Source: an uncultured Clostridia bacterium | GTDB taxonomy: Bacteria; Bacillota; Clostridia; Oscillospirales; Ruminococcaceae | DNA length: 10,333 nucleotides | Direction of reading: 5' to 3' | Assembly (NCBI GenBank): GCA_947177545.1 | Contig: CAMWVF010000018.1 | Span: 1 to 10,333 of the forward strand | Shown here: one piece after another, positions 100 to 8,399 of the stretch | Layout of the letters: every line of letters begins with the position of its first letter | Numbering within the stretch: position 1 is the first letter of the stretch | Notes under the pieces: generated by a model | Told to the model about the DNA's origin: nothing | The model's input: only the letters and a program-made list of their open reading frames with translations | Databases searched by the model: none | Made by a program: the position numbers and the translations under genes

Positions 100-128
100 T
101 TGACTTTTGTAACTCGAAAGTGTATAAT
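100..128 (+). promoter_or_regulatory. Near-consensus sigma-A promoter for the RHH repressor gene
   Basis: TTGACT (100-105) and TATAAT (123-128) are separated by 17 bp, so transcription should begin near 135, about 26 nt before the start codon. One copy of the direct repeat (111-122) fills part of the spacer and abuts the -10 box, where a bound repressor would block RNA polymerase. Confidence 0.8.
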
Positions 129-150
129 GTAATTACGGAACTCGAAAGTG
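111..150 (+). repeat. Direct repeat, probable RHH operator
   Basis: AACTCGAAAGTG occurs exactly at 111-122 and again at 139-150, 28 bp apart start to start. The first copy lies between -35 and -10; the second ends at the ribosome binding site of the downstream ribbon-helix-helix gene. Small RHH proteins commonly bind repeated half-sites in their own promoters, so autoregulation is the likely role (inference). Confidence 0.6.
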
Positions 151-160
151 AGGTGATAAA

Positions 161-337
161 ATGTCTCCGAGGACAGGCAGACCAATAATAGGAGCGAAAA
201 AAGATATTGACGTAAAGGTTCGTTTCGACAAAGAAACGAATGATAAGCTTTTGGAGTATTGCAAAAAAAACAGTGTAACAAGAGCCGAAGTAATACGTCA
301 AAGCGTAACTCTATTTCTGTCTGAAGAAAAAAAATAA
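161..337 (+). CDS. Ribbon-helix-helix (CopG/Arc-like) DNA-binding protein, 58 aa
   Basis: The protein begins MSPRTGRP, a basic arm common on small Firmicute RHH proteins. A candidate beta strand follows (IDVKVRFD, residues 16-23), then helix A (KETNDKLLEYCKKN, 24-37) and a second helix after the turn SVTRAEVIRQSVTLFL (38-53). This is the usual RHH layout, which dimerises and inserts a two-stranded sheet into the DNA major groove. The length is normal for a single-domain member. The start is supported by GAGGTG (150-155), 5 bases upstream. The promoter at 100-128 and the repeated AACTCGAAAGTG suggest autoregulation. The final lysine/glutamate codons are A-rich and serve, on the other strand, as the T-run of an antisense terminator. 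There is no plus-strand terminator after it, so read-through into the gene at 459 is possible. The target other than its own promoter is unknown. Confidence 0.85.
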   Translation: MSPRTGRPIIGAKKDIDVKVRFDKETNDKLLEYCKKNSVTRAEVIRQSVTLFLSEEKK

Positions 338-374
338 CGCAAACTGCACCCTACCAAAGTTTCAGCTTGCGTTA
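327..374 (-). terminator. Intrinsic terminator of the minus-strand small RNA
   Basis: TAACGCAA (335-342) pairs with TTGCGTTA (367-374), extended by a 3-bp CTG/CAG step after one mismatch. Reading leftwards, the stem is followed directly by eight T residues (complement of A327-334). On the plus strand the stem has no T-run, so termination is minus-strand only. The T-run lies in the last codons of the RHH gene. Confidence 0.7.
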
Positions 375-401
375 CCCAAAACAGACAAGAAAGTCTATCC
401 G
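327..401 (-). ncRNA. Predicted ~75-nt small RNA convergent with the RHH gene
   Basis: A perfect TTGACA-17-TATAAT promoter on the minus strand (408-436) predicts a start near 401, and a hairpin with a T8 tail ends the transcript near 327. The RNA would have a short 5' stem (AGAC/GTCT around tttctt), a single-stranded stretch and the terminator hairpin. It has no credible reading frame with a ribosome binding site. It overlaps only the last few codons of the RHH gene, tail to tail. It could be a trans-acting RNA or an antisense regulator; no Rfam family is recognised. Confidence 0.6.
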
Positions 402-434
402 AAATCTATTATACATCGGAAATGCTTTCTTGTC
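384..434. repeat. 51-bp interrupted dyad centred on the small-RNA promoter
   Basis: GACAAGAAAG (384-393) mirrors CTTTCTTGTC (425-434), and TCCGA (398-402) mirrors TCGGA (416-420). Both pairs share the same centre at 409, inside the minus-strand -10 box. The left arm plus adjoining bases (ACAAGAAAGTC, 385-395) matches the RHH operator repeat ACTCGAAAGTG at 8 of 11 positions, so the RHH protein may bind here too. In a plus-strand read-through RNA it would fold as a hairpin. Confidence 0.5.
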
Positions 435-436
435 AA
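408..436 (-). promoter_or_regulatory. Consensus sigma-A promoter of the minus-strand small RNA
   Basis: Read on the minus strand, TTGACA (436-431) and TATAAT (413-408) match consensus exactly with a 17-bp spacer. The -35 region extends to TTGACAAGAAA, the same 11 bases found at the toxin promoter at 1014-1043. Confidence 0.75.
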
Positions 437-458
437 GACCTTTGAAAGGAAGTTTTTT

Positions 459-707
459 ATGGATAACAATGAATTTAGTTTTGACGCGCTTTTAAATAAC
501 GACGAATTTGCTCGCTATGAAAGTCCTGCAACTATGTACGCTATGGAAGATTTTTTGAAAGTTGTAAGGGAATGTGTCGGAGACGAAAAATCTATGGAAA
601 AAATCAAAAAAGAAAGCAAGGATTTATCATACTGCGTTTTTAACGACGCTTTTCAACAGGGCTTCTGCTTTGCGGTGAAATCGCTGAAATTTATGCTTAA
701 AATTTAG
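459..707 (+). CDS. Small acidic protein of unknown function, 82 aa
   Basis: The start at 459 follows GAAAGGAAG at a normal distance. The protein has an acidic, Asn-rich start (MDNNEFSFDALLNNDEF), a central stretch of charged helix (residues about 29-53) and a C-terminal amphipathic segment, NDAFQQGFCFAVKSLKFMLK (62-81). The ending F..GF..AVK.LKFML is reminiscent of small Firmicute proteins annotated as DUF6809, but I cannot confirm membership. No signal peptide or clear membrane segment is visible. It lies between the RHH/small-RNA unit and the toxin-antitoxin locus. A plus-strand promoter directly in front is not obvious; transcription from the RHH promoter, through the dyad at 384-434, is possible. 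Confidence 0.65.
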   Translation: MDNNEFSFDALLNNDEFARYESPATMYAMEDFLKVVRECVGDEKSMEKIKKESKDLSYCVFNDAFQQGFCFAVKSLKFMLKI

Positions 708-728: not shown

Positions 729-757
729 TTGACAAAATCAGTTTTGAGTGGTATAAT
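729..757 (+). promoter_or_regulatory. Consensus promoter of the predicted antitoxin RNA
   Basis: TTGACA (729-734) and TATAAT (752-757) match consensus exactly with a 17-bp spacer, giving a start near 764. Strong, constitutive-looking promoters are usual for type I antitoxin RNAs. Confidence 0.85.
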
Positions 758-765
758 AATATCAT

Positions 766-806
766 AAAGGATATGATGAACTCTATGTCAAACATGAGTG
801 TTCACC
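766..806 (+). repeat. Direct repeats, antitoxin copy (DRa 766-777, DRb 788-806)
   Basis: AAAGGATATGAT (766-777) is identical to 942-953. TCAAACATGAGTGTTCACC (788-806) matches 958-975 at 16 of 19 aligned positions, with two substitutions and one gap. The two blocks are 10 bases apart here and 4 bases apart in the toxin copy. Two separate direct-repeat pairs are the defining RNA-RNA recognition elements of pAD1 par. Confidence 0.8.
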
Positions 807-843
807 AAAAATGCCCCCCGAGTGGTGTCGGGGGGACTTTTTT
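807..843. terminator. Shared bidirectional intrinsic terminator
   Basis: CCCCCCGA (814-821) pairs with TCGGGGGG (828-835) around the loop GTGGTG. On the plus strand six T residues follow after AC (838-843). On the minus strand the stem is followed by CA and a T5 run (complement of A807-811). It ends both the antitoxin RNA and the toxin mRNA and gives the two RNAs a further complementary segment, including the loops. Confidence 0.85.
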
Positions 844-860
844 GCTGTTGCTGCCTTCTT

Positions 861-965
861 TTACTTCTTTCGACCGTTCAGCCGATTGCGTATGTAGTCA
901 TAAAGGAAATTCGCGGCTACTTCCGCTCCAACGGTGACAAGAAAGGATATGATAAATTCAAACAC
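861..965 (-). CDS. Predicted Fst-like type I toxin peptide, 34 aa
   Basis: A GTG start at 965 is preceded at 8 bases by AGGTGG within GGAAAGGTGG (983-974). The peptide begins with a hydrophobic stretch (FEFIISFLVTVGAEVAANFL, residues 2-21), enough to span the membrane once, and ends in a basic tail, RNRLNGRKK. Fst/Ldr-family toxins are 30-35 residues with the same plan: one membrane helix and a charged tail. The mRNA would start near 1007, after the promoter at 1014-1043, and end near 808, about 200 nt, close to RNA I of pAD1. The Shine-Dalgarno and start region lies inside direct repeat DRb, complementary to the RNA at 764-843. Longer versions starting upstream (TTG at 1046) are excluded because they begin before the promoter. 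Assignment rests on architecture more than residue similarity. Confidence 0.72.
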   Translation of the reverse strand: MFEFIISFLVTVGAEVAANFLYDYIRNRLNGRKK

Positions 966-975
966 GAGCTTCACC
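942..975 (+). repeat. Direct repeats, toxin copy (DRa 942-953, DRb 958-975)
   Basis: This is the second copy of the blocks at 766-777 and 788-806. On the minus strand it covers the distal end of the Shine-Dalgarno sequence (974-975), the GTG start codon (963-965) and codons 2-8 of the toxin, so pairing with the antitoxin RNA would cover the translation initiation site. Confidence 0.8.
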
Positions 976-1013
976 ACCTTTCCGCCGTAAGCGTAGGGGT
1001 CGGCAACGTAAAT

Positions 1014-1043
1014 ATTATAGCATATTTTATCATTTCTTGTCAA
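1014..1043 (-). promoter_or_regulatory. Extended -10 promoter of the toxin mRNA
   Basis: Read on the minus strand, TTGACA (1043-1038) and TATAAT (1019-1014) have an 18-bp spacer ending in TGC, giving an extended -10 (TGCTATAAT). Transcription should start near 1007, leaving a leader of about 42 nt. In this leader TTGCCG (1006-1001) can pair with CGGCGG (987-982, partly by G-U), a hairpin that would reach into the Shine-Dalgarno sequence (983-974). Confidence 0.8.
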
Positions 1044-2222: not shown

Positions 2223-2537
2223 ATGAAAATGAAGAAGATTCTTGCTGCTATCGCAGCTTGCGCAATGTCTGCAGCTATGGTTAGCATGACAGCTTTCGCT
2301 TCACCTGCTGAGGGCGAAGAGGAAGAGCTTCCCACAGATCCCGTTGAGATTGAGGATCCTGTTGATGATGAGGATCCTGCTGATGATGAGGATCCCGGCG
2401 AAGAGCCTGCTGATACCGATCCCGAGCCTGATCCTGCTCCCGCACCAAACCCCGGCACAGGCAACGCTCCTATCGCTCTTGCAGTAATTCCTGTAGCTCT
2501 TGCTGCTGCAGCTGTTGTTGCTAAGAAGGCTAAGTAA
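2223..2537 (+). CDS. Surface protein A: short acidic Pro-rich stalk with sorting signal, 104 aa
   Basis: Residues 1-26 form a signal peptide ending MTAFA, with cleavage expected before SPAEG. The mature part is an acidic, proline-rich chain without hydrophobic core (repeats of DPxDDEDP, then EPDPAPAPNP), so it should be extended. The last 29 residues start NPGTGN at residue 76, followed by a hydrophobic stretch and KKAK, the layout of a sortase signal with NPxTG in place of LPXTG. The start at 2223 has GGAGG (2209-2213) 9 bases upstream; an in-frame start at 2157 is rejected because it precedes the -10 box. It has its own promoter and a strong terminator. It shares both ends with proteins B-F but lacks their central domain, and may be a spacer-like wall protein or the vestige of a larger one. 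Confidence 0.8.
   Translation: MKMKKILAAIAACAMSAAMVSMTAFASPAEGEEEELPTDPVEIEDPVDDEDPADDEDPGEEPADTDPEPDPAPAPNPGTGNAPIALAVIPVALAAAAVVAKKAK
2353..2394 (+). repeat. Tandem 18-bp coding repeat
   Basis: AGGATCCTGYTGATGATG occurs at 2353-2370 and 2371-2388 (Y is T, then C), followed by a partial third copy. It encodes the repeated acidic DP-DDE units of protein A and could change in copy number by slippage. Confidence 0.75.
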
Positions 2538-2556
2538 GGCGAAAATTTGCAAATTC

Positions 2557-2588
2557 AAAGCCGTCCGTTTGGGGCGGCTTTGTTTTTT
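2557..2588 (+). terminator. Intrinsic terminator after surface protein A
   Basis: AAAGCCGTCC (2557-2566) pairs with the run ending CGGCTTT at 2581 (10 bp, one G-T wobble, 5-base loop), followed by G and six T residues. Confidence 0.9.
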
Positions 2589-2647
2589 GGCGGACTGTTC
2601 GGGGGTTTTTCAGAGCCTCGCAGGAAAAGTTTCCCTTAAATGGCGGA

Positions 2648-2667
2648 ATTGTGTAAAAATGCACAAT
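2648..2667. repeat. Inverted repeat upstream of surface protein B
   Basis: ATTGTG (2648-2653) and CACAAT (2662-2667) surround an 8-base AT-rich spacer. It adjoins the cre-like site and lies upstream of the -10 box at 2722, a reasonable place for a regulator to bind. The regulator is unknown. Confidence 0.4.
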
Positions 2668-2680
2668 GTAAACGTTATTA
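2667..2680 (+). promoter_or_regulatory. cre-like site (CcpA/LacI-family operator candidate)
   Basis: TGTAAACGTTATTA fits the catabolite-response consensus TGWAANCGNTNWCA at 13 of 14 positions; the mismatch is T for C at position 13. It lies about 42 bp before the -10 box of the B-C operon. Carbon-source control of these surface proteins would make sense if they bind glycans, but this rests on one short match. Confidence 0.4.
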
Positions 2681-2721
2681 TTTCTTGCAAAATTGATATA
2701 GATTTTTTTAAAGGTTTATTG

Positions 2722-2727
2722 TATAAT
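2722..2727 (+). promoter_or_regulatory. -10 box for the B-C operon
   Basis: TATAAT is present, but no good -35 lies at 16-18 bp. TTGATA (2693-2698) is 23 bp away, too far for ordinary sigma-A use. The promoter may need an activator. Confidence 0.45.
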
Positions 2728-2790
2728 TAAGCTGTAAGGTTGCCCATAATATAGGGTACACATACACATTATTTTTTGGAGGAGTTTATC

Positions 2791-3513
2791 ATGAAAATTA
2801 AAAAGATCATTGCTGCTGTTGCAGCGGCTGCAGTTGCAGTTTCAACTATGGCTATTTCTGTTTTTGCTGACGACTCATACAACGCTTATCTCGGCGTTCA
2901 GACAAATCCCAACTGGATTTTCAGAAACAGCTGGAATGACGGAAGCTTCGGAAGAGACAACTACGACAATTTCAACAACCTCAGCAAGGACGGCGCACCT
3001 GCCGATATCGCAGGCACATTCACAGATGTTGTGATCACAGGCGACGGAACTTATAAGGTTTCTCTCACAGGCGCAGACCTCAGCTCCGAGGAAATATTCA
3101 GCTTGCTGTTCATTTCCACAGATATTCCCCTTGACGCAGGCGTAACTATCAGCAACGTTAAGGTAATTATCGACGGTCAGACAAAGTATACTTTTGACGA
3201 GGCTTTCCTCAGCCCTGATGAAAAGACCTATATGTCTCCTATGGCTATCAACATCTGGAACGAAGACCTCGGCAAGGAAGACGGTCTGTTCGGATACACA
3301 ATGCCCAATGATTCCGTAGAAATGGAATTTACTGTTTCCGGTATGGGCAGCGGCGCAGCTGCTGATACAACAGAGGCTGCTGATACGGCTGAAGCACCCG
3401 CAGAGACAACTACAACCACGTCTCCCACAACAGGCAACGTTCCCGCTGCTGTTATGGTTTCAGTAATGGCTGTAGCAGGCACAGCTGCTGTTATTTCAAG
3501 AAAGAGAAAGTAA
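2791..3513 (+). CDS. Surface protein B: secreted, sortase-type anchor, beta-rich domain, 240 aa
   Basis: Residues 1-26 are a signal peptide (ending ISVFA, cleaved before DDSYN). A probable beta-sandwich fills residues about 28-190: WIFRNSW near 42-48, ITGDGTYKVSL from 82, LLFISTDIPL, VKVIIDG, MAINIWNE and EMEFTVSG are strand-like alternating segments. Such GDGTY.VS domains occur in exported proteins of ruminococci and suggest ligand, perhaps carbohydrate, binding (inference). A Thr/Ala/Glu linker (about 191-210) precedes the sorting signal SPTTGN (211-216), a hydrophobic stretch and RKRK. SPxTG resembles the (S/P)PxTG signal of Clostridioides difficile sortase B more than LPXTG. The start at 2791 has GGAGGAG 6 bases before it. 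Only 25 bases separate it from gene C, indicating an operon. Confidence 0.85.
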   Translation: MKIKKIIAAVAAAAVAVSTMAISVFADDSYNAYLGVQTNPNWIFRNSWNDGSFGRDNYDNFNNLSKDGAPADIAGTFTDVVITGDGTYKVSLTGADLSSEEIFSLLFISTDIPLDAGVTISNVKVIIDGQTKYTFDEAFLSPDEKTYMSPMAINIWNEDLGKEDGLFGYTMPNDSVEMEFTVSGMGSGAAADTTEAADTAEAPAETTTTTSPTTGNVPAAVMVSVMAVAGTAAVISRKRK

Positions 3514-3538
3514 TTTAATTTGAAAGGAAGATATTATT

Positions 3539-4279
3539 ATGAAAATCAAAAGAATTCTTGCTGCAGTTGCAGCAACAGCCGTTGCAGTTTCAACAATGGC
3601 AGTAACAGCTTTCGCAGGTCAGGATACAAGCAATCTTGCTGACGGAACAGCTTACCTCAACCTCAATACAGCTGACTGGGCTGCTTTTGACGCTGACTGG
3701 ACAAACGTTGAAGTTACAGGCGACGGCACATACACAGTTTCTATGACAGCTGCAAGCCCCGTAGACCTTGGTCAGTTCAATGCTCTTGAAATCATGAACG
3801 GCGAAACAAAGTTCGGCACAACTTATATTGTTACAGTTGATTCTATCAAGGTAAACGGTGTAGAGGCTAAGTCCGCAGAGGGATATACTTGTTCCGCTGA
3901 CGGCGCAGGCGTCCACACAAGAGTAAACATCTACAACGAGTGGAACAGCCCCGATGATACAGCTACAAATAAGGACACAGGCACACCCGATAACAGATGC
4001 ACAGACGGTGACATCATGAGCAAGTCCGCTCGTATGGTTGCTTCTATGGACGATATCGCAGGCGTTGAGACTATGGAAGTTACTTTCACAGTTTCCGGTA
4101 TCGGCGGCGCTGCTGCTCCTGCTGAGGAAACAACAGACGCAGCTGACACAGCAGAAGCTCCCGCAGCTGACACAGCTCCCACAACTACTGCTGCTACAGG
4201 CAATGTTCCCGCTGCTGTTATAGTTTCCGTAATGGCTGTTGCAGGCGTTGCTGCTGTTGCGACAAAGAAAAGAAAGTAA
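3539..4279 (+). CDS. Surface protein C: paralogue of B, 246 aa
   Basis: A 26-residue signal peptide (ends VTAFA) precedes a domain of about 155 residues with the same landmarks as B: VEVTGDGTYTVSM (57-69), VDSIKVNGVEA, RVNIYNEW and MEVTFTVSG. The two domains therefore share a fold while most residues differ. It has two cysteines close to NPD/GTPDN-type loops (YTCSADG and DNRCTDG), absent from B, which could form a disulfide. A Thr/Ala/Glu linker leads to AATGN (218-222), the hydrophobic segment and KKRK. The ribosome binding site AAAGGAAG lies 8 bases before the ATG. It is the second gene of the B-C operon, ended by the terminator at 4395-4429. Its binding target is unknown. Confidence 0.85.
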   Translation: MKIKRILAAVAATAVAVSTMAVTAFAGQDTSNLADGTAYLNLNTADWAAFDADWTNVEVTGDGTYTVSMTAASPVDLGQFNALEIMNGETKFGTTYIVTVDSIKVNGVEAKSAEGYTCSADGAGVHTRVNIYNEWNSPDDTATNKDTGTPDNRCTDGDIMSKSARMVASMDDIAGVETMEVTFTVSGIGGAAAPAEETTDAADTAEAPAADTAPTTTAATGNVPAAVIVSVMAVAGVAAVATKKRK

Positions 4280-4389
4280 GCACTGCGCGTGCGGCGTTGT
4301 TCTACCCCGCAGTTAGGCAGCGGCAAGCCGTTATTGTGCTAAGCCCCTATCAAGTGGCAGGTAAGATGCAGCAATATTTATTATTTTTA
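4280..4389 (+). other. 3' untranslated region of gene C with ~82-nt extra segment
   Basis: Bases 4280-4299 match 7055-7074, downstream of gene F, at 18 of 20 positions; from 4390 the two regions match again (AAAGTAA, then a similar CACCCG terminator). Between these anchors gene C has 90 nt and gene F has 8. The extra piece contains the perfect hairpin CGGCAAGCCG (4321-4330) and is richer in GC than the flanks. It may be a small inserted element or an RNA domain lost after F. Confidence 0.6.
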
Positions 4390-4394
4390 AAAGT

Positions 4395-4429
4395 AAGCAC
4401 CCGTGAATTTTTCTCGGGTGCTTTTGTTT
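4395..4429 (+). terminator. Intrinsic terminator of the B-C operon
   Basis: AAGCACCCG (4395-4403) pairs with CGGGTGCTT (4415-4423) around an 11-base loop, followed by TTGTTT. Confidence 0.85.
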
Positions 4430-4488
4430 ATAGTGCATTTTCGCTATTTTAAACAAAAAAATTGCGAAATAATTATTCAAAAAAGAGG

Positions 4489-4517
4489 TTGTTAATTTTC
4501 AATAATAATGTTATAAT
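4489..4517 (+). promoter_or_regulatory. Promoter of surface protein D (D-E unit)
   Basis: TTGTTA (4489-4494) and TATAAT (4512-4517) are 17 bp apart. Transcription should start near 4524, about 49 nt before the ATG at 4573, which rules out the longer in-frame start at 4462. Confidence 0.7.
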
Positions 4518-4572
4518 TATATCACGAATAGTGGCGCAACAGCCATACAAAAAGAAATGGAGGAAACATCAA

Positions 4573-5304
4573 ATGAAGATTTCTAAGATTCTTACATCTA
4601 TCGCAGCAGCAGCTACCGTTGCTTCTATGATTGCTGTAAGCGCAAGCGCAACAAACTGGGCTAATGCCAGCTATGCTGACAATGACCCAAACACAGTAAA
4701 GGTTATTTCAACAGACGAAAACAAGGCTTCCTTTACAGCTACTGCTGACGGAACAACAGCCAAGCTCCGTGTGACTGTTGGCGACATTCTTGAAGAGGCT
4801 GACATTGCAAATGTAAAGTCTGCTTCATGGACTGTTAATTACGAGATTCCCGAGGGAACTGCTGTAGGCAACGGTGTCGGCGGCGGTACATACTTCGGTA
4901 TCAAGAATTCCACAGGCTACTGGATCAGTCCTGATTATGATGATGACGGAAATGCTTACTGGGGCAGCACAACATACTCGGCTACAGACGACGCTAAGTT
5001 CCTGCTTCCTACAGAGATTCTTGCTGCTGATTCCGAGTTGGTATTTATGGATTGGTCAAACCATGAGGCTATTACAGCTATGACTGTAAGCATCACAGAC
5101 CTCAAGTTCTTTGACGCTGACGGCAATGAGATCGCTCAGAAAGCTTACGAGGGTACATCTGCTCCCGCAGCTACAGAGACTCCCGCAGCGGATAATGGTG
5201 CAGCTACAACTTCCGCAACAACGGGTAATGCTACGGTTGCTTCTATTGCTGCTGTAATGGCTGTTGCAGGCGTTGCTGCGATCGCTGCAAAAAAGAGAAA
5301 GTAA
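4573..5304 (+). CDS. Surface protein D: secreted, sortase-type anchor, 243 aa
   Basis: The signal peptide is 26 residues (MKISKILTSI to VSASA, cleaved before TNWAN). The mature domain (about 27-190) is beta-rich and aromatic: ASWTVNYEIPEG, GGGTYFGIKNSTGYWISP, YWGSTTY, LVFMDWSNHEA and a closing ITDLKFFDADGNEIAQK. The end strand with FDADGNE is typical of beta-sandwich carbohydrate-binding modules, and exposed tryptophans/tyrosines would fit sugar stacking, but no CBM family is recognised. A short Ala/Thr linker (EGTSAPAATETPAADNGAAT) precedes SATTGN (214-219), a hydrophobic stretch and KKRK. GGAGG (4559-4563) lies 9 bases before the ATG. Gene E follows after 69 bases with no terminator between, so both are probably co-transcribed. 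Confidence 0.83.
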   Translation: MKISKILTSIAAAATVASMIAVSASATNWANASYADNDPNTVKVISTDENKASFTATADGTTAKLRVTVGDILEEADIANVKSASWTVNYEIPEGTAVGNGVGGGTYFGIKNSTGYWISPDYDDDGNAYWGSTTYSATDDAKFLLPTEILAADSELVFMDWSNHEAITAMTVSITDLKFFDADGNEIAQKAYEGTSAPAATETPAADNGAATTSATTGNATVASIAAVMAVAGVAAIAAKKRK

Positions 5305-5373
5305 TATTGTGCGGTATTTTCCGGGCAATTTATTACTAAATAAATTTTAAAAAAAATTTTGGAGGAATTTACA

Positions 5374-6171
5374 ATGAAACTTAAAAAGATTCTCGCTGCT
5401 GTTGCAGCAGCTGCTGTTGCGGTTTCCACAATGGCAGTAAGCGCATTCGCTATTAAGGATTATCCCGACGGATATACTGTTGACCTTATTGCTGAAGGTT
5501 ACGATGTAACCGCTATTGCTGGATTTACTGTTAAGATTTCTGGAGATATCGACAGCGGTACAGGCGGCGGCGCAGGCTTTAACAGTGCTACAACAGGTTG
5601 GGATTCTACCGAGTGGGGCAACGCTGATGCTGCTAAGGCTATTAACGCTTCTGATGGAGAGATTACAATTAAGAGAGATGCTCCTGTATTTATGGAGTCA
5701 GATGTTACAGATCCTGACAATCCATATGCACAGATTTGGGTTCAGCAGTGGTGGGGTTCTGATATAACTATTGATAGTTTGACTGTTTTTGATAAGGACG
5801 GTAATGAGCTTGCTAAGGGTGCTGTTGATTATACTCCTGCTGAAACAGAGGCTGAGGCTGCTGAAACAGAAGCGGCTCCTGAGGAAACAACAGAAGCTGC
5901 TCCCGAGGAGACAGAGGCTGCTCCTGTTGAGACAGAGGCTGAGGTTGAAGACGAGGACGTTGATGTTGATGCTGACGAGCCCGAAGAAGAGGCTGAAGAG
6001 CCTGAGGAAGAGGTTGCTCCTGTTGAGACAGAGGCTCCCGCTGTTGAGGAAGCTCCTGCTCCCGAGACAAATACAGCTCCTGCACAGACAGGTAACGTTG
6101 CTGTTGCTTCTATCGTTGCTGTAATGGCTGTTGCCGGCGCTGCTACTATTGTAGCTAAGAAAAGAAAGTAA
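5374..6171 (+). CDS. Surface protein E: beta-rich domain plus long Glu-rich stalk, 265 aa
   Basis: A 26-residue signal peptide (ends VSAFA) is followed by a domain of about 120 residues: FTVKISGDIDSGTGGGAGF, TTGWDSTEW, YAQIWVQQWWGSDITIDSL and FDKDGNELAKG. The many tryptophans and the terminal FDKDGNE strand parallel protein D and suggest a carbohydrate-binding module (inference). Residues about 153-235 form an extremely acidic stalk (repeats of APxET, then EDEDVDVDADEPEEE), much longer than in the other members. The sorting signal PAQTGN (236-241) precedes a hydrophobic segment and KKRK. The ATG at 5374 has GGAGG (5361-5365) 8 bases upstream. It is probably the second gene of the D-E unit, ended at 6189-6221. 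The stalk should span cell wall or hold calcium-like cations, but neither is shown. Confidence 0.83.
   Translation: MKLKKILAAVAAAAVAVSTMAVSAFAIKDYPDGYTVDLIAEGYDVTAIAGFTVKISGDIDSGTGGGAGFNSATTGWDSTEWGNADAAKAINASDGEITIKRDAPVFMESDVTDPDNPYAQIWVQQWWGSDITIDSLTVFDKDGNELAKGAVDYTPAETEAEAAETEAAPEETTEAAPEETEAAPVETEAEVEDEDVDVDADEPEEEAEEPEEEVAPVETEAPAVEEAPAPETNTAPAQTGNVAVASIVAVMAVAGAATIVAKKRK
5920..6036 (+). repeat. Repeated stalk-coding segments in gene E
   Basis: The 21 bases at 5920-5940 recur exactly at 6016-6036, both encoding APVETEA, and shorter GAGACAGAGGCT units occur around them. Such repeats allow stalk length to change by recombination. Confidence 0.7.
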
Positions 6172-6188
6172 TTTCTGATACTTATTAT

Positions 6189-6221
6189 TTAAAGGGATAC
6201 TTCGGTATCCCTTTAATTTTT
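6189..6221 (+). terminator. Intrinsic terminator of the D-E unit
   Basis: TTAAAGGGATAC (6189-6200) and its complement (6205-6216) close a TTCG tetraloop, followed by five T residues (6217-6221). Confidence 0.9.
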
Positions 6222-6268
6222 CTCTGTTATATACAAAAAACAATGAAATTTTTTATATAAAAATGGAG

Positions 6269-6297
6269 TTGCTAAATCTAAAATTAAATGGTATAAT
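6269..6297 (+). promoter_or_regulatory. Promoter of surface protein F
   Basis: TTGCTA (6269-6274) and TATAAT (6292-6297) have a 17-bp spacer, predicting a start near 6304. The leader contains a 5-bp hairpin (AGCGG 6312-6316 / CCGCT 6322-6326) upstream of the Shine-Dalgarno sequence at 6335-6339. Confidence 0.7.
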
Positions 6298-6348
6298 TAT
6301 ATTGTATAAAAAGCGGATAAACCGCTAATGAATTGGAGGAAATTTACA

Positions 6349-7053
6349 ATGAAGATTAAAAAGTTCGTAGCTGCTTTGGCAGCTGCTGCTATGGCTGTTT
6401 CCATGGTGGCTGTTAACGCTTTCGCTGCAACCGTTACACTCGATTCCGAGTATCCCGGCGGCTGGCAGGCAAGCAAGGGTATTCCAAAGGCTGAGTTTGA
6501 GGCTATCGGCGGCGATGTTAAGGTAGTTCTCACAGTTGAGACAAAGGAACCCCTCGTTGGCGAGCACAATCACCTTGCTAAGCCTATGAATATGTGTGTA
6601 AGCTGGGACGCTATCACAGCTAACCTCAAGAGCGACACAGCTATTGCTAAGGGTGACGGATTTATCGTTTTTGCTGACGGTCAGACATCTCTCGAATTTG
6701 TAGTTCCCGAGTCCGTATGGTCCGAGTTCAAGGGCTATGTTGACGCTGACGGCAACGAGGACGAGAGCGCAGGTCTCTACTTCCAGGTAAACGATGTTAT
6801 CATCAAGTCTGCTGATCTTTCCGCTGCTGATGCTCAGGGTGATTTTATGATCATCTCCGAGGACGAGGCTAAGAGCGTTATGGAGGGTACACTTACACGT
6901 GACGCTGCTCCCGCAGCACCTGTTGAAGATGCTCCCGCTGCTGATACAGCTCCCACAACTTCCGCTACAACAGGCAACGTTCCCGCTGCTGTTATGGTTT
7001 CCGTAATGGCTGTTGCAGGCGCTGCTGCTATCGCTTCCAAGAAGAGAAAGTAA
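6349..7053 (+). CDS. Surface protein F: secreted, sortase-type anchor, 234 aa
   Basis: The signal peptide is 26 residues (MKIKKFVAAL to VNAFA, before ATVTL). The mature domain (about 27-185) includes VKVVLTVETKEP, MNMCVSWDAI, GFIVFADGQTSLEFVVPESVW and GLYFQVNDVIIKSADLS, strand-like segments compatible with a beta-sandwich. It has a single cysteine. An Ala/Pro/Asp linker leads to SATTGN (205-210), a hydrophobic segment and KKRK. The last ~50 bases of coding sequence are nearly the same as in B and C, and the region after the stop resembles that after C, so this end was duplicated recently or is kept alike by recombination. The ATG at 6349 has GGAGG 9 bases before it; an in-frame ATG at 6328 lies before that site. 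It is transcribed alone, between the promoter at 6269 and the terminator at 7095. Ligand unknown. Confidence 0.84.
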   Translation: MKIKKFVAALAAAAMAVSMVAVNAFAATVTLDSEYPGGWQASKGIPKAEFEAIGGDVKVVLTVETKEPLVGEHNHLAKPMNMCVSWDAITANLKSDTAIAKGDGFIVFADGQTSLEFVVPESVWSEFKGYVDADGNEDESAGLYFQVNDVIIKSADLSAADAQGDFMIISEDEAKSVMEGTLTRDAAPAAPVEDAPAADTAPTTSATTGNVPAAVMVSVMAVAGAAAIASKKRK

Positions 7054-7202: not shown

Positions 7203-8399
7203 TTAAATTCCGAGAAGACTTTTTATCTCCGCCGCAAGCTTATCAGAAGCCTTTTCATGAGTTGTTACAGAAGGGTGCCAGTCCGCGGAATAACCGTCGT
7301 CTGGAAGCTGTACGTCAAACTTCATTGCCGAAACATTGCTGTCCCCTGTCTGCTCGGTGTAGTTGTACACCGCAAGCTGAACATAATCGAAAAGCCTGTC
7401 CCCCATTACGCCGAGGGTGCAGAGGATTTTAGCGTCGGGGTTGTTCTCGCGTATTTTCTTGATAAACTCGACATATGCGTCGCAGTACTCCTGCTGCCGC
7501 TCGCTGTCGGTCTTTGTGTAGCTGTCGTCGTTTGTGCCGAGGTTGATAACAACAACATCGGGCTGACGCTTGCTGAAATCCCAGTCGATGTTTGCGGGGA
7601 CGAAGCTGCCGTTGCTTGCCCAGGAATATCCAAGCTTTGTGTAGAACTGGGGCACGGTCTGCGCCTCAACCTTTTTGTCGTTGGTATAGCCCGAAATAAT
7701 TCCGTAGCCGCTGAATGAAACCATGCTGTAGTCGGCATTAAGCTTTTCGGCAGTCCTGTAGGCGTACGCCTTTGTAACGTCCTCGGTTTTGGTGGAGAAG
7801 TTGTGATCCTTGTCCGGATCGTCAATGCCGTAGCCGCAGGTAATGGAGTCGCCGACAAATTCAATAAGCAGGTCTTTATTCGGCGTGGGAGCTATTTTTG
7901 AACCCGTGGCTCTTATCTCCTTGATACCGATAGTGGACATTGGAGACTCGGAAAGCTTAACGATAGAGATCACCGCAGTTTCGGGGGTATCGCTTTCAAA
8001 CACGTCGTAAACCTCCTGAATATTGTCCACCATGTCGTCAACAACGCGCTCGCCGTTTACGTATATTGCAACGCGCGCCTGATTGTCCGCAGCCGTGGGG
8101 GACATGGCGTTAGAGTCACCCGTGACTACAACGGAGCATTTTGTGCCGTTAAAGGTAAATTCCGCTCCCGATCCTGAAAGGGCGCAGTAAAGCTTTTCGC
8201 CGTCAAAATATGTACGCCCCAGAAGCTTTACATTTTCCTCTGTGAGCTGATATATCGTTTCGGTATTCATATCGTGTTCTTCCTCCGTTACTGTTGTTTC
8301 ATTTGCGGCAGAAGCATTGTCCGCCGAATCTGTGTTGTTCCCACAGGCTGTAAGGGTAAGCAGCAATGACGCTGCCGTTAATAATTTTGCTATTCTCAT
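7203..8399 (-). CDS. SGNH/GDSL acetylesterase lipoprotein, CE2-like, 398 aa
   Basis: The N-terminus is a lipoprotein signal with lipobox LTAC (Cys19), then a Ser/Thr/Glu linker to about 45. Residues about 52-165 (LLGRTYFDGEKLYCALSGSG, ending IGIKEIRATG) form the N-terminal jelly-roll typical of carbohydrate esterase family 2. The SGNH hydrolase domain follows: FVGDSITCGYG with Ser185, the NLGTND block (286-291) and DWHPS with His375 near the C-terminus. CE2 enzymes remove acetyl groups from xylan and other polysaccharides; here it should sit outside the cell on a lipid anchor. The start at 8399 has GGGAGG upstream (8406-8411), and a promoter lies at 8444-8472. It is convergent with the surface-protein array. 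Substrate is not determined by the sequence; a general GDSL esterase is the alternative. Confidence 0.88.
   Translation of the reverse strand: MRIAKLLTAASLLLTLTACGNNTDSADNASAANETTVTEEEHDMNTETIYQLTEENVKLLGRTYFDGEKLYCALSGSGAEFTFNGTKCSVVVTGDSNAMSPTAADNQARVAIYVNGERVVDDMVDNIQEVYDVFESDTPETAVISIVKLSESPMSTIGIKEIRATGSKIAPTPNKDLLIEFVGDSITCGYGIDDPDKDHNFSTKTEDVTKAYAYRTAEKLNADYSMVSFSGYGIISGYTNDKKVEAQTVPQFYTKLGYSWASNGSFVPANIDWDFSKRQPDVVVINLGTNDDSYTKTDSERQQEYCDAYVEFIKKIRENNPDAKILCTLGVMGDRLFDYVQLAVYNYTEQTGDSNVSAMKFDVQLPDDGYSADWHPSVTTHEKASDKLAAEIKSLLGI

What the first reader, a model, noticed from the sequence alone, without database searches (positions are those of the whole stretch)
729..1043. A pAD1 par/Fst-like type I toxin-antitoxin locus
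Seen: two consensus promoters face each other (729-757 plus, 1014-1043 minus), one strong bidirectional terminator sits between (807-843), and the minus-strand mRNA (~200 nt) encodes a 34-residue membrane-helix peptide with basic tail (861-965) translated from GTG behind GGAAAGGTGG. The plus-strand RNA is ~80 nt. Known: pAD1 par has RNA I (~210 nt, Fst) and RNA II (~65 nt) converging on a shared terminator with direct repeats DRa/DRb. Inference: this is a chromosomal par-like module in a ruminococcal-type genome, with a peptide sequence different from classical Fst.
Basis: partly seen in the sequence, partly recalled or inferred. Interest (0 to 1): 0.92.

Follow-up and report, generated by a model that had tools for sequence, protein, structure and literature searches.

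The report
Par-like toxin–antisense RNA module
A gut-bacterium chromosome carries a 300-base module in which a tiny membrane peptide, probably toxic, is likely kept silent by a short RNA read from the opposite strand; it is laid out like a known plasmid addiction system and has many relatives whose matching RNA segments appear to change together.

Summary
In detail: two perfect facing promoters (729-757 plus; 1043-1014 minus), a shared hairpin terminator (814-835) and a 34-codon membrane-peptide ORF (861-965, minus, GTG). In 105 non-redundant loci the within-locus repeat match (mean 28.7) far exceeds cross-locus matches (14.4; largest of 20,000 permutations 16.2); 85 of 105 exceed the cross 99th percentile. 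Among 75 related pairs (remaining toxin CDS 75-100% identical), 72 keep own above cross. This supports a par-like type I toxin-antitoxin module in a Ruminococcus-like genome. The peptide is not a clean Fst: the window copy lacks the Fst/Ldr tryptophan and XXXG glycine and no curated model hits it above cut-off; most relatives keep the tryptophan, and many match C. difficile type I and Ldr models weakly. Some relatives form head-to-tail arrays; 30 of 32 units in multi-unit loci match their own antitoxin region best. Transcription and toxicity are untested.

The parts
729..757 (+). antitoxin promoter, TTGACA-17-TATAAT with extended TG
   Evidence: 12/12; antisense promoter of at least 9/12 downstream of the toxin in 50 of 54 loci against 31 of 153 background windows
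764..842 (+). predicted antitoxin RNA, about 80 nt (ends inferred)
766..783 (+). direct repeat a, copy in the antitoxin gene (AAAGGATATGATGAACTC)
   Evidence: family D1
788..807 (+). direct repeat b, copy in the antitoxin gene (TCAAACATGAG..TTCACCA)
   Evidence: family D5, extended by reading
814..835 (.). shared bidirectional terminator hairpin (8 pairs, 7 G-C), T tract on both strands
   Evidence: hairpin within 95 bases of the stop in 48 of 54 loci
849..856 (-). 3' side of the predicted upstream helix of the toxin mRNA, just past the stop codon
861..965 (-). toxin ORF, 34 codons, GTG start: MFEFIISFLVTVGAEVAANFLYDYIRNRLNGRKK
   Evidence: related frames in other loci
942..959 (-). direct repeat a, copy inside the toxin gene (first codons)
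   Evidence: family D1
958..976 (-). direct repeat b, copy over the toxin start codon and part of the Shine-Dalgarno
974..983 (-). Shine-Dalgarno GGAAAGGTGG
   Evidence: predicted paired in the folded mRNA with probability 0.89-1.0
1001..1008 (-). 5' side of the predicted upstream helix at the mRNA 5' end
807..1007 (-). predicted toxin mRNA, about 200 nt (ends inferred)
1014..1043 (-). toxin promoter, TTGACA-18-TATAAT with extended TG
   Evidence: 12/12; sense promoter of at least 9/12 upstream of the toxin in 46 of 54 loci against 18 of 154 background windows

Best explanation
It is a chromosomal type I toxin-antitoxin module built and controlled like par of pAD1. The minus-strand promoter makes a mRNA of about 200 nt that encodes a 34-residue single-helix membrane peptide; the plus-strand promoter makes an antitoxin RNA of about 80 nt; the two converge on one terminator. 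The antitoxin pairs with the mRNA at the shared terminator hairpin and at two repeat-derived segments that cover the Shine-Dalgarno, the GTG start and the first codons, and so blocks ribosome loading. The mRNA is also predicted to fold its 5' end onto the region after the stop codon and to hide its own Shine-Dalgarno until paired. Shown by sequence: layout, complementarity, per-locus co-variation, related reading frames. Inferred: transcription, translation block, membrane toxicity, and the benefit to the cell or element. The window copy, having lost two signature residues, may be weakened.
For: Promoters, terminator, ORF. Repeats. Predicted duplex of the antitoxin 5' part with the toxin start region -41.6 kcal/mol, spanning part of the Shine-Dalgarno and the GTG. 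Within-locus against cross-locus repeat match: 54 loci, own 29.5, cross 14.6, permutation maximum 17.2 of 20,000, own strictly best in its row in 40 of 54 and in its column in 39 of 54; 48 of 54 beat dinucleotide shuffles at p<=0.05 and 44 of 54 reach the floor of 1/301; 105 loci, own 28.7, cross 14.4, 85 above the 99th percentile of cross, own best in its row in 73. Of 75 related pairs (remaining CDS at least 75% identical; pairs with an own score of 23 or less left out), 72 have both own scores above both cross scores. Promoters and hairpins: all three in 37 of 54. Positional orthologue in G013 before the same fumarase gene: promoters kept, both repeat copies differ from the window's but match each other. 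Upstream helix stronger in own than in swapped pairs on average, 0 of 20,000 permutations. A plasmid locus annotated as Fst family toxin (L078) shows the same kind of repeat.
Against: No RNA or growth data. The window peptide has R where 28 of 30 aligned family rows have W, and E where most have G, S or N, and no Pfam or NCBIfam model above cut-off. 20 of 105 loci do not exceed the 99th percentile of cross matches, among them the own-genome paralogue L002 (own 19; shuffle p 0.043), and some (L051, L056, L058, L148, L151) show no clear repeat. The most similar pair (CDS 100%, L128/L129) is one of the 3 of 75 in which own does not beat cross. The Shine-Dalgarno hairpin, though predicted in the window, is no better in own than in swapped partners (8,084 of 20,000 permutations as good). 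The upstream-helix effect is a modest mean shift (-14.7 against -12.5; own below the 5th percentile of cross in only 12 of 95). The duplex measure is partly driven by the terminator region: the L002 antitoxin region scores about as well with two other mRNAs as with its own. Codon positions differ 0.36/0.33/0.49 in 12 genus copies, only a mild third-position excess.
Confidence: 0.88

Rival explanations
1. A C. difficile-style type I module: the peptide belongs with NF047374 and the antitoxin acts by a long overlap at the 3' ends and RNA decay, not at the start codon.
For: 16 of 30 family peptides match NF047374, best E 2.2e-05; C. difficile modules are convergent, with long complementarity suggesting degradation (PMC6563280, passages).
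Against: The window peptide itself does not match, the model's cut-off is 60 bits and the E-values are far from that, and the co-varying repeats lie over the start codon, which a 3'-overlap mechanism does not need.
Confidence: 0.08
2. A decaying copy of such a module (not exclusive of the best explanation): promoters and repeats persist but the window peptide is no longer toxic.
For: Window copy has E in the helix and R for the conserved W, while its positional orthologue and own-genome paralogue keep G and W.
Against: Promoters are perfect, the repeat match is intact (own 27, best in its row), the frame is open, and the prototype FstpAD1 lacks W too (PMC7472228).
Confidence: 0.3
3. Convergent promoters and an ORF by chance, or an unrelated antisense RNA.
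For: Background windows carry antisense promoters of 9/12 or better in 31 of 153.
Against: 0 of 200 samples with a convergent 12/12 pair; same layout in most of 54 loci and co-varying repeats.
Confidence: 0.01

Closest known systems
par of pAD1 (RNA I/Fst, RNA II) and chromosomal par homologues
   Same: Convergent promoters, shared bidirectional terminator, direct repeats over the toxin start region, GTG start, upstream helix, small membrane peptide (PMC7472228, passages, the section on sequence and structure). That review already counts commensal Clostridia among Fst carriers.
   Different: Window peptide not hit by NF033608, 1 of 30 relatives at E 0.13; window copy without W and XXXG; genus form has about four extra residues between SxxxG and W; no YUNR in the window's toxin-side terminator loop.
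C. difficile type I modules (NF047374; CD2517.1-RCd8 and kin)
   Same: Clostridial, convergent, mostly cognate-only antitoxins (PMC6563280 and PMC7699646, passages); weak profile match for 16 of 30 relatives.
   Different: Toxins of 47-53 residues in several modules, 34-35 in others; the passages seen describe no repeats over the start codon (a search for 'direct repeat' in both papers found none); window peptide does not match.
Ldr/Rdl (LdrD)
   Same: Peptide tail: best PDB profile match is LdrD, E 0.027; PF13940 weakly matched by 6 of 30.
   Different: Ldr control is described as more like hok/sok (PMC7472228).

Membership tests
par (RNA layout) | two convergent promoters | tested here: met
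par (RNA layout) | shared bidirectional intrinsic terminator | tested here: met
   hairpin in 48 of 54 loci
par (RNA layout) | direct repeats DRa/DRb giving antitoxin complementarity over the toxin translation start | tested here: met
par (RNA layout) | 5' upstream helix of RNA I | tested here: met
   predicted in the window; own better than swapped on average, 0 of 20,000 permutations, 95 of 105 loci used; a modest shift
par (RNA layout) | 5' stem-loop hiding the Shine-Dalgarno | tested here: inconclusive
   strongly predicted in the window, but own no better than swapped partners across loci
par (RNA layout) | U-turn (YUNR) in the toxin terminator loop | tested here: not met
   loop CACCAC on the toxin strand; PMC7472228 says not all homologues have one
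Fst/Ldr toxin superfamily | tryptophan between helix and charged tail | tested here: not met
   R in the window; W in 28 of 30 rows of A4, the other exception having G
Fst/Ldr toxin superfamily | P/D/S/TXXXG in the helix | tested here: not met
   window reads TVGAE; many relatives read SVAAG
Fst/Ldr toxin superfamily | hydrophobic helix and charged C-terminus, about 30-35 residues | tested here: met
   best 19-residue hydropathy 1.73, 34 residues, tail RNRLNGRKK
NCBIfam Fst toxin (NF033608) | match above curated cut-off | tested here: not met
   no hit at E<=1; 1 of 30 relatives at E 0.13
NCBIfam C. difficile type I toxin (NF047374) | match above curated cut-off | tested here: not met
   window no hit; 16 of 30 relatives match, best E 2.2e-05
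type I toxin-antitoxin system | peptide toxicity relieved by the RNA | not testable with these tools
   needs expression experiments

The most novel reading that the evidence does not exclude
Clostridia carry a large clade of par-like modules in which the pairing segments (start-codon arm and antitoxin arm) change together and faster than the rest of the toxin gene, so that neighbouring copies in head-to-tail arrays become mutually insulated: a diversifying antisense-specificity system, like plasmid incompatibility RNAs, built into chromosomes, plasmids and filamentous phages.
Probability: 0.35. Interest if true: 0.65.

Novelty: new variant of a known kind. Interest (0 to 1): 0.5.

Why it matters
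Specificity between par systems is described for one pair (pAD1 and EF0409; PMC7472228). Here about a hundred loci, some in tandem, give a natural data set for how an antisense RNA and its target change partners together while the toxin stays similar. It also suggests that many short membrane-peptide genes in gut Clostridia that the curated Fst model misses (1 of 30 tested hit it, and weakly) are type I toxins, and gives a sequence-only test, the within-locus repeat, to recognise them.

Tried and rejected
Curated models for the single window peptide: Pfam and NCBIfam gave nothing above cut-off; the best chance hit (MWFE, E 0.12-0.17) was rejected. Rfam: none at gathering score; best permissive match rli38, E 0.11, 26.5 bits against a cut-off of 49, rejected. 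DNA matches in the genus (16 of 21 genomes) overstate the family because many rows cover only about 20-50 bases at a promoter; the peptide profile gives 8 of 21. One control (+45..+135 against B, mean 24.5) was invalid because the two stretches overlap, and the upstream control (-150..-60; median 17, mean 21.8) is raised by loci with a neighbouring copy (that cause is my reading); the cross-locus and shuffle controls are the ones used. The Shine-Dalgarno hairpin as a locus-specific feature was not supported. The phage and plasmid protein searches had E-values of 0.1 or worse; of their 10 hits I fetched three (H2, H9, H10 = L080, L079, L078), which also match the profile and carry a repeat. In print: (open-licence library; lists capped: 20 of 3,516, 20 of 57, 15 of 7,017, 15 of 16; 1 of 1, 6 of 6) listed no paper whose title or abstract start concerns par-like modules in Ruminococcus or Oscillospiraceae; two primary sources recalled, a 2010 type I survey and T1TAdb, are not held, so priority is not established.

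Full report
Observation. The window holds three 12/12 sigma-70 promoters (one plus, two minus); first-order Markov samples average 0.005, and none of 200 holds a convergent pair within 400 bases. The ORF starts at a GTG (965-963) behind GGAAAGGTGG.

The missing piece. One search finds them: AAAGGATATGATGAACTC (766-783) recurs at 942-959 with two mismatches, and TCAAACATGAG (788-798) at 958-968 with one, followed on both sides by TTCACCA. Order: antitoxin promoter, repeats, terminator, toxin stop, toxin body, repeats over start and Shine-Dalgarno, toxin promoter. PMC7472228 (passages and figure legend) describes the same elements for par; the exact order in par is recalled. Because the RNAs run in opposite directions the repeats make them complementary: predicted pairing of the antitoxin 5' part with the toxin start region is -41.6 kcal/mol and spans part of the Shine-Dalgarno and the GTG.

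Relatives. The own genome (55% complete, 386 contigs) holds one more DNA match, L002, 67% identical, lying between an ftsH-like gene and a phosphoesterase-like gene (gene names are my reading of the ORFs). A peptide profile finds copies in 8 of 21 genomes of the genus, 29 of 297 sampled from the family (an earlier profile) and 19 of 398 sampled from the phylum, the own genome counted each time. Contigs of six of the 17 named loci have the same lengths as same-genus contigs and carry the same modules; they are recorded as Ruminococcus sp., Oscillospiraceae or uncultured Clostridia MAGs. Related modules lie on a 3.9-kb mobilizable plasmid (L079), in a filamentous phage from rodent faeces, bajarodino virus 15 (L080), in three viral contigs, and on a Megamonas plasmid where the peptide is annotated as an Fst family toxin (L078).

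The test. For each locus the stretch around the toxin start (-45..+45) was compared with the stretch 33-133 bases past the stop of the same locus and of all others. First set: 75 profile hits, of which 56 distinct loci at E<=0.001 were kept; one dropped for length (L034), one as a duplicate (L062), 54 used; own 29.5, cross 14.6, permutation maximum 17.2 in 20,000; 48 of 54 at p<=0.05 and 44 of 54 at the floor 1/301 against dinucleotide shuffles. Larger set: 168 profile hits, 58 duplicates and 5 at contig edges dropped, 105 used; own 28.7, cross 14.4, permutation maximum 16.2, 85 above the cross 99th percentile, own best in its row for 73. The window scores 27 and ranks first in its row. The 20 that do not pass include L002, and some show no repeat, so the feature is general but not universal.

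Concerted change. Among pairs whose remaining toxin CDS is at least 75% identical and whose own scores both exceed 23 (75 pairs, not independent; others left out), 72 have both own scores above both cross scores, including pairs 94%, 97% and 98% identical in the CDS; the one pair at 100% does not. In 22 pairs with CDS at least 85% identical the start-side arm averages 0.69 identity against 0.90 for the rest of the CDS, 0.70 for the promoter/leader and 0.45 for the best-matching antitoxin stretch; pairs were picked for high CDS identity, which biases this, the antitoxin stretches differ in length and place, and the start arm is no more variable than the leader. In G013 the module sits before the same fumarase gene (90% protein identity); its promoters and leader are similar, its peptide is 41% identical to the window's, and both repeat copies differ from the window's but match each other (own 27 and 30, cross 16 and 11). 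Of 20 fumarase loci fetched in the genus only these two have the module there; two of the others (L082, L086) hold less than 500 bases upstream. In 13 fetched loci with two or more units, 30 of 32 units match their own antitoxin region better than any same-locus partner by repeat score and 29 of 32 by duplex energy; L128 and L129 are related arrays, so these are not all independent.

Other par features. Promoters of at least 9/12 in 46 of 54 (toxin) and 50 of 54 (antitoxin), background 18 of 154 and 31 of 153; hairpins in 48 of 54; all three in 37 of 54. The 5' upstream helix is predicted in the window and is stronger in own than in swapped pairs on average (95 of 105 loci), though only 12 of 95 fall below the 5th percentile of cross. 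The Shine-Dalgarno hairpin is strongly predicted in the window but not locus-specific. No YUNR is present in the window's toxin-side terminator loop.

The peptide. Relatives share a short form (..SFLVSVAAGIAAYYICKWLDR..) and a long form with about four extra residues (..SFLVSVAAGIVANILYNIICKWLNGGRK) that includes the genus copies closest to the window's. By my count S to W is 13 residues in the short form; the matching PXXXG-to-W spacing in Fst is recalled, not computed here. This is the SXXXG..W pattern that PMC7472228 gives for the Fst/Ldr superfamily. The profile's best PDB match is LdrD (E 0.027), its best NCBIfam model the C. difficile type I toxin (16 of 30 members, best 2.2e-05). The window copy reads TVGAE and RNRLN, losing G and W, so it fails two signature tests and may be attenuated; FstpAD1 lacks W as well, while its proline and glycine were essential.

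What was known. PMC7472228 counts commensal Clostridia among Fst carriers; PMC6563280 (passages) reports that an earlier survey found Ldr/Fst-like sequences in only two clostridial species and describes C. difficile modules with mostly cognate-only antitoxins. I found no description of the present clade, within the limits given under Tried and rejected.

Verdict. It works like par, with high confidence from sequence. It is not filed as an Fst family toxin because tested features are not met. Novelty: a new variant of a known kind; the unusual part is the number of relatives, the arrays and the paired change of the pairing segments. No transcription or toxicity evidence exists here.

Noticed in passing
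window 100-440: A small ribbon-helix-helix gene (161-337) is met from the other side by a 12/12 minus-strand promoter (436-408) that would make a short RNA of about 75 nt ending in a hairpin and T tract. Close matches to that promoter (up to 1 mismatch to a degenerate pattern) lie at 20 places in 8 of 21 genus genomes (reversed-pattern control 0), four of them about 400 bp apart on own-genome contig C165; 15 of the 20 fetched loci hold an RHH match. No Rfam match in the window.
   Followed up: partly
window 459-704: 82-residue protein of unknown function, repeated: 6 matches in the own genome (itself included) and matches in 7 of 21 genus genomes; 7 of the 12 fetched loci also hold an RHH match at E<=0.001.
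   Followed up: partly
window 2223-7053: Run of six secreted-looking proteins with similar signal peptides, each with a TGN motif before a hydrophobic stretch and a basic end, which looks like a surface-sorting tail (my reading).
   Followed up: no
window 7203-8399 (minus): Putative lipoprotein esterase (lipobox is my reading) with CE2 N-terminal and GDSL lipase domains.
   Followed up: no
L080 1001-1081: The filamentous phage bajarodino virus 15 carries an unannotated copy of the peptide frame with its own repeat.
   Followed up: partly
L152, L150, L128, L161, L077: Head-to-tail runs of three or four modules about 300-620 bp apart in related genomes.
   Followed up: yes
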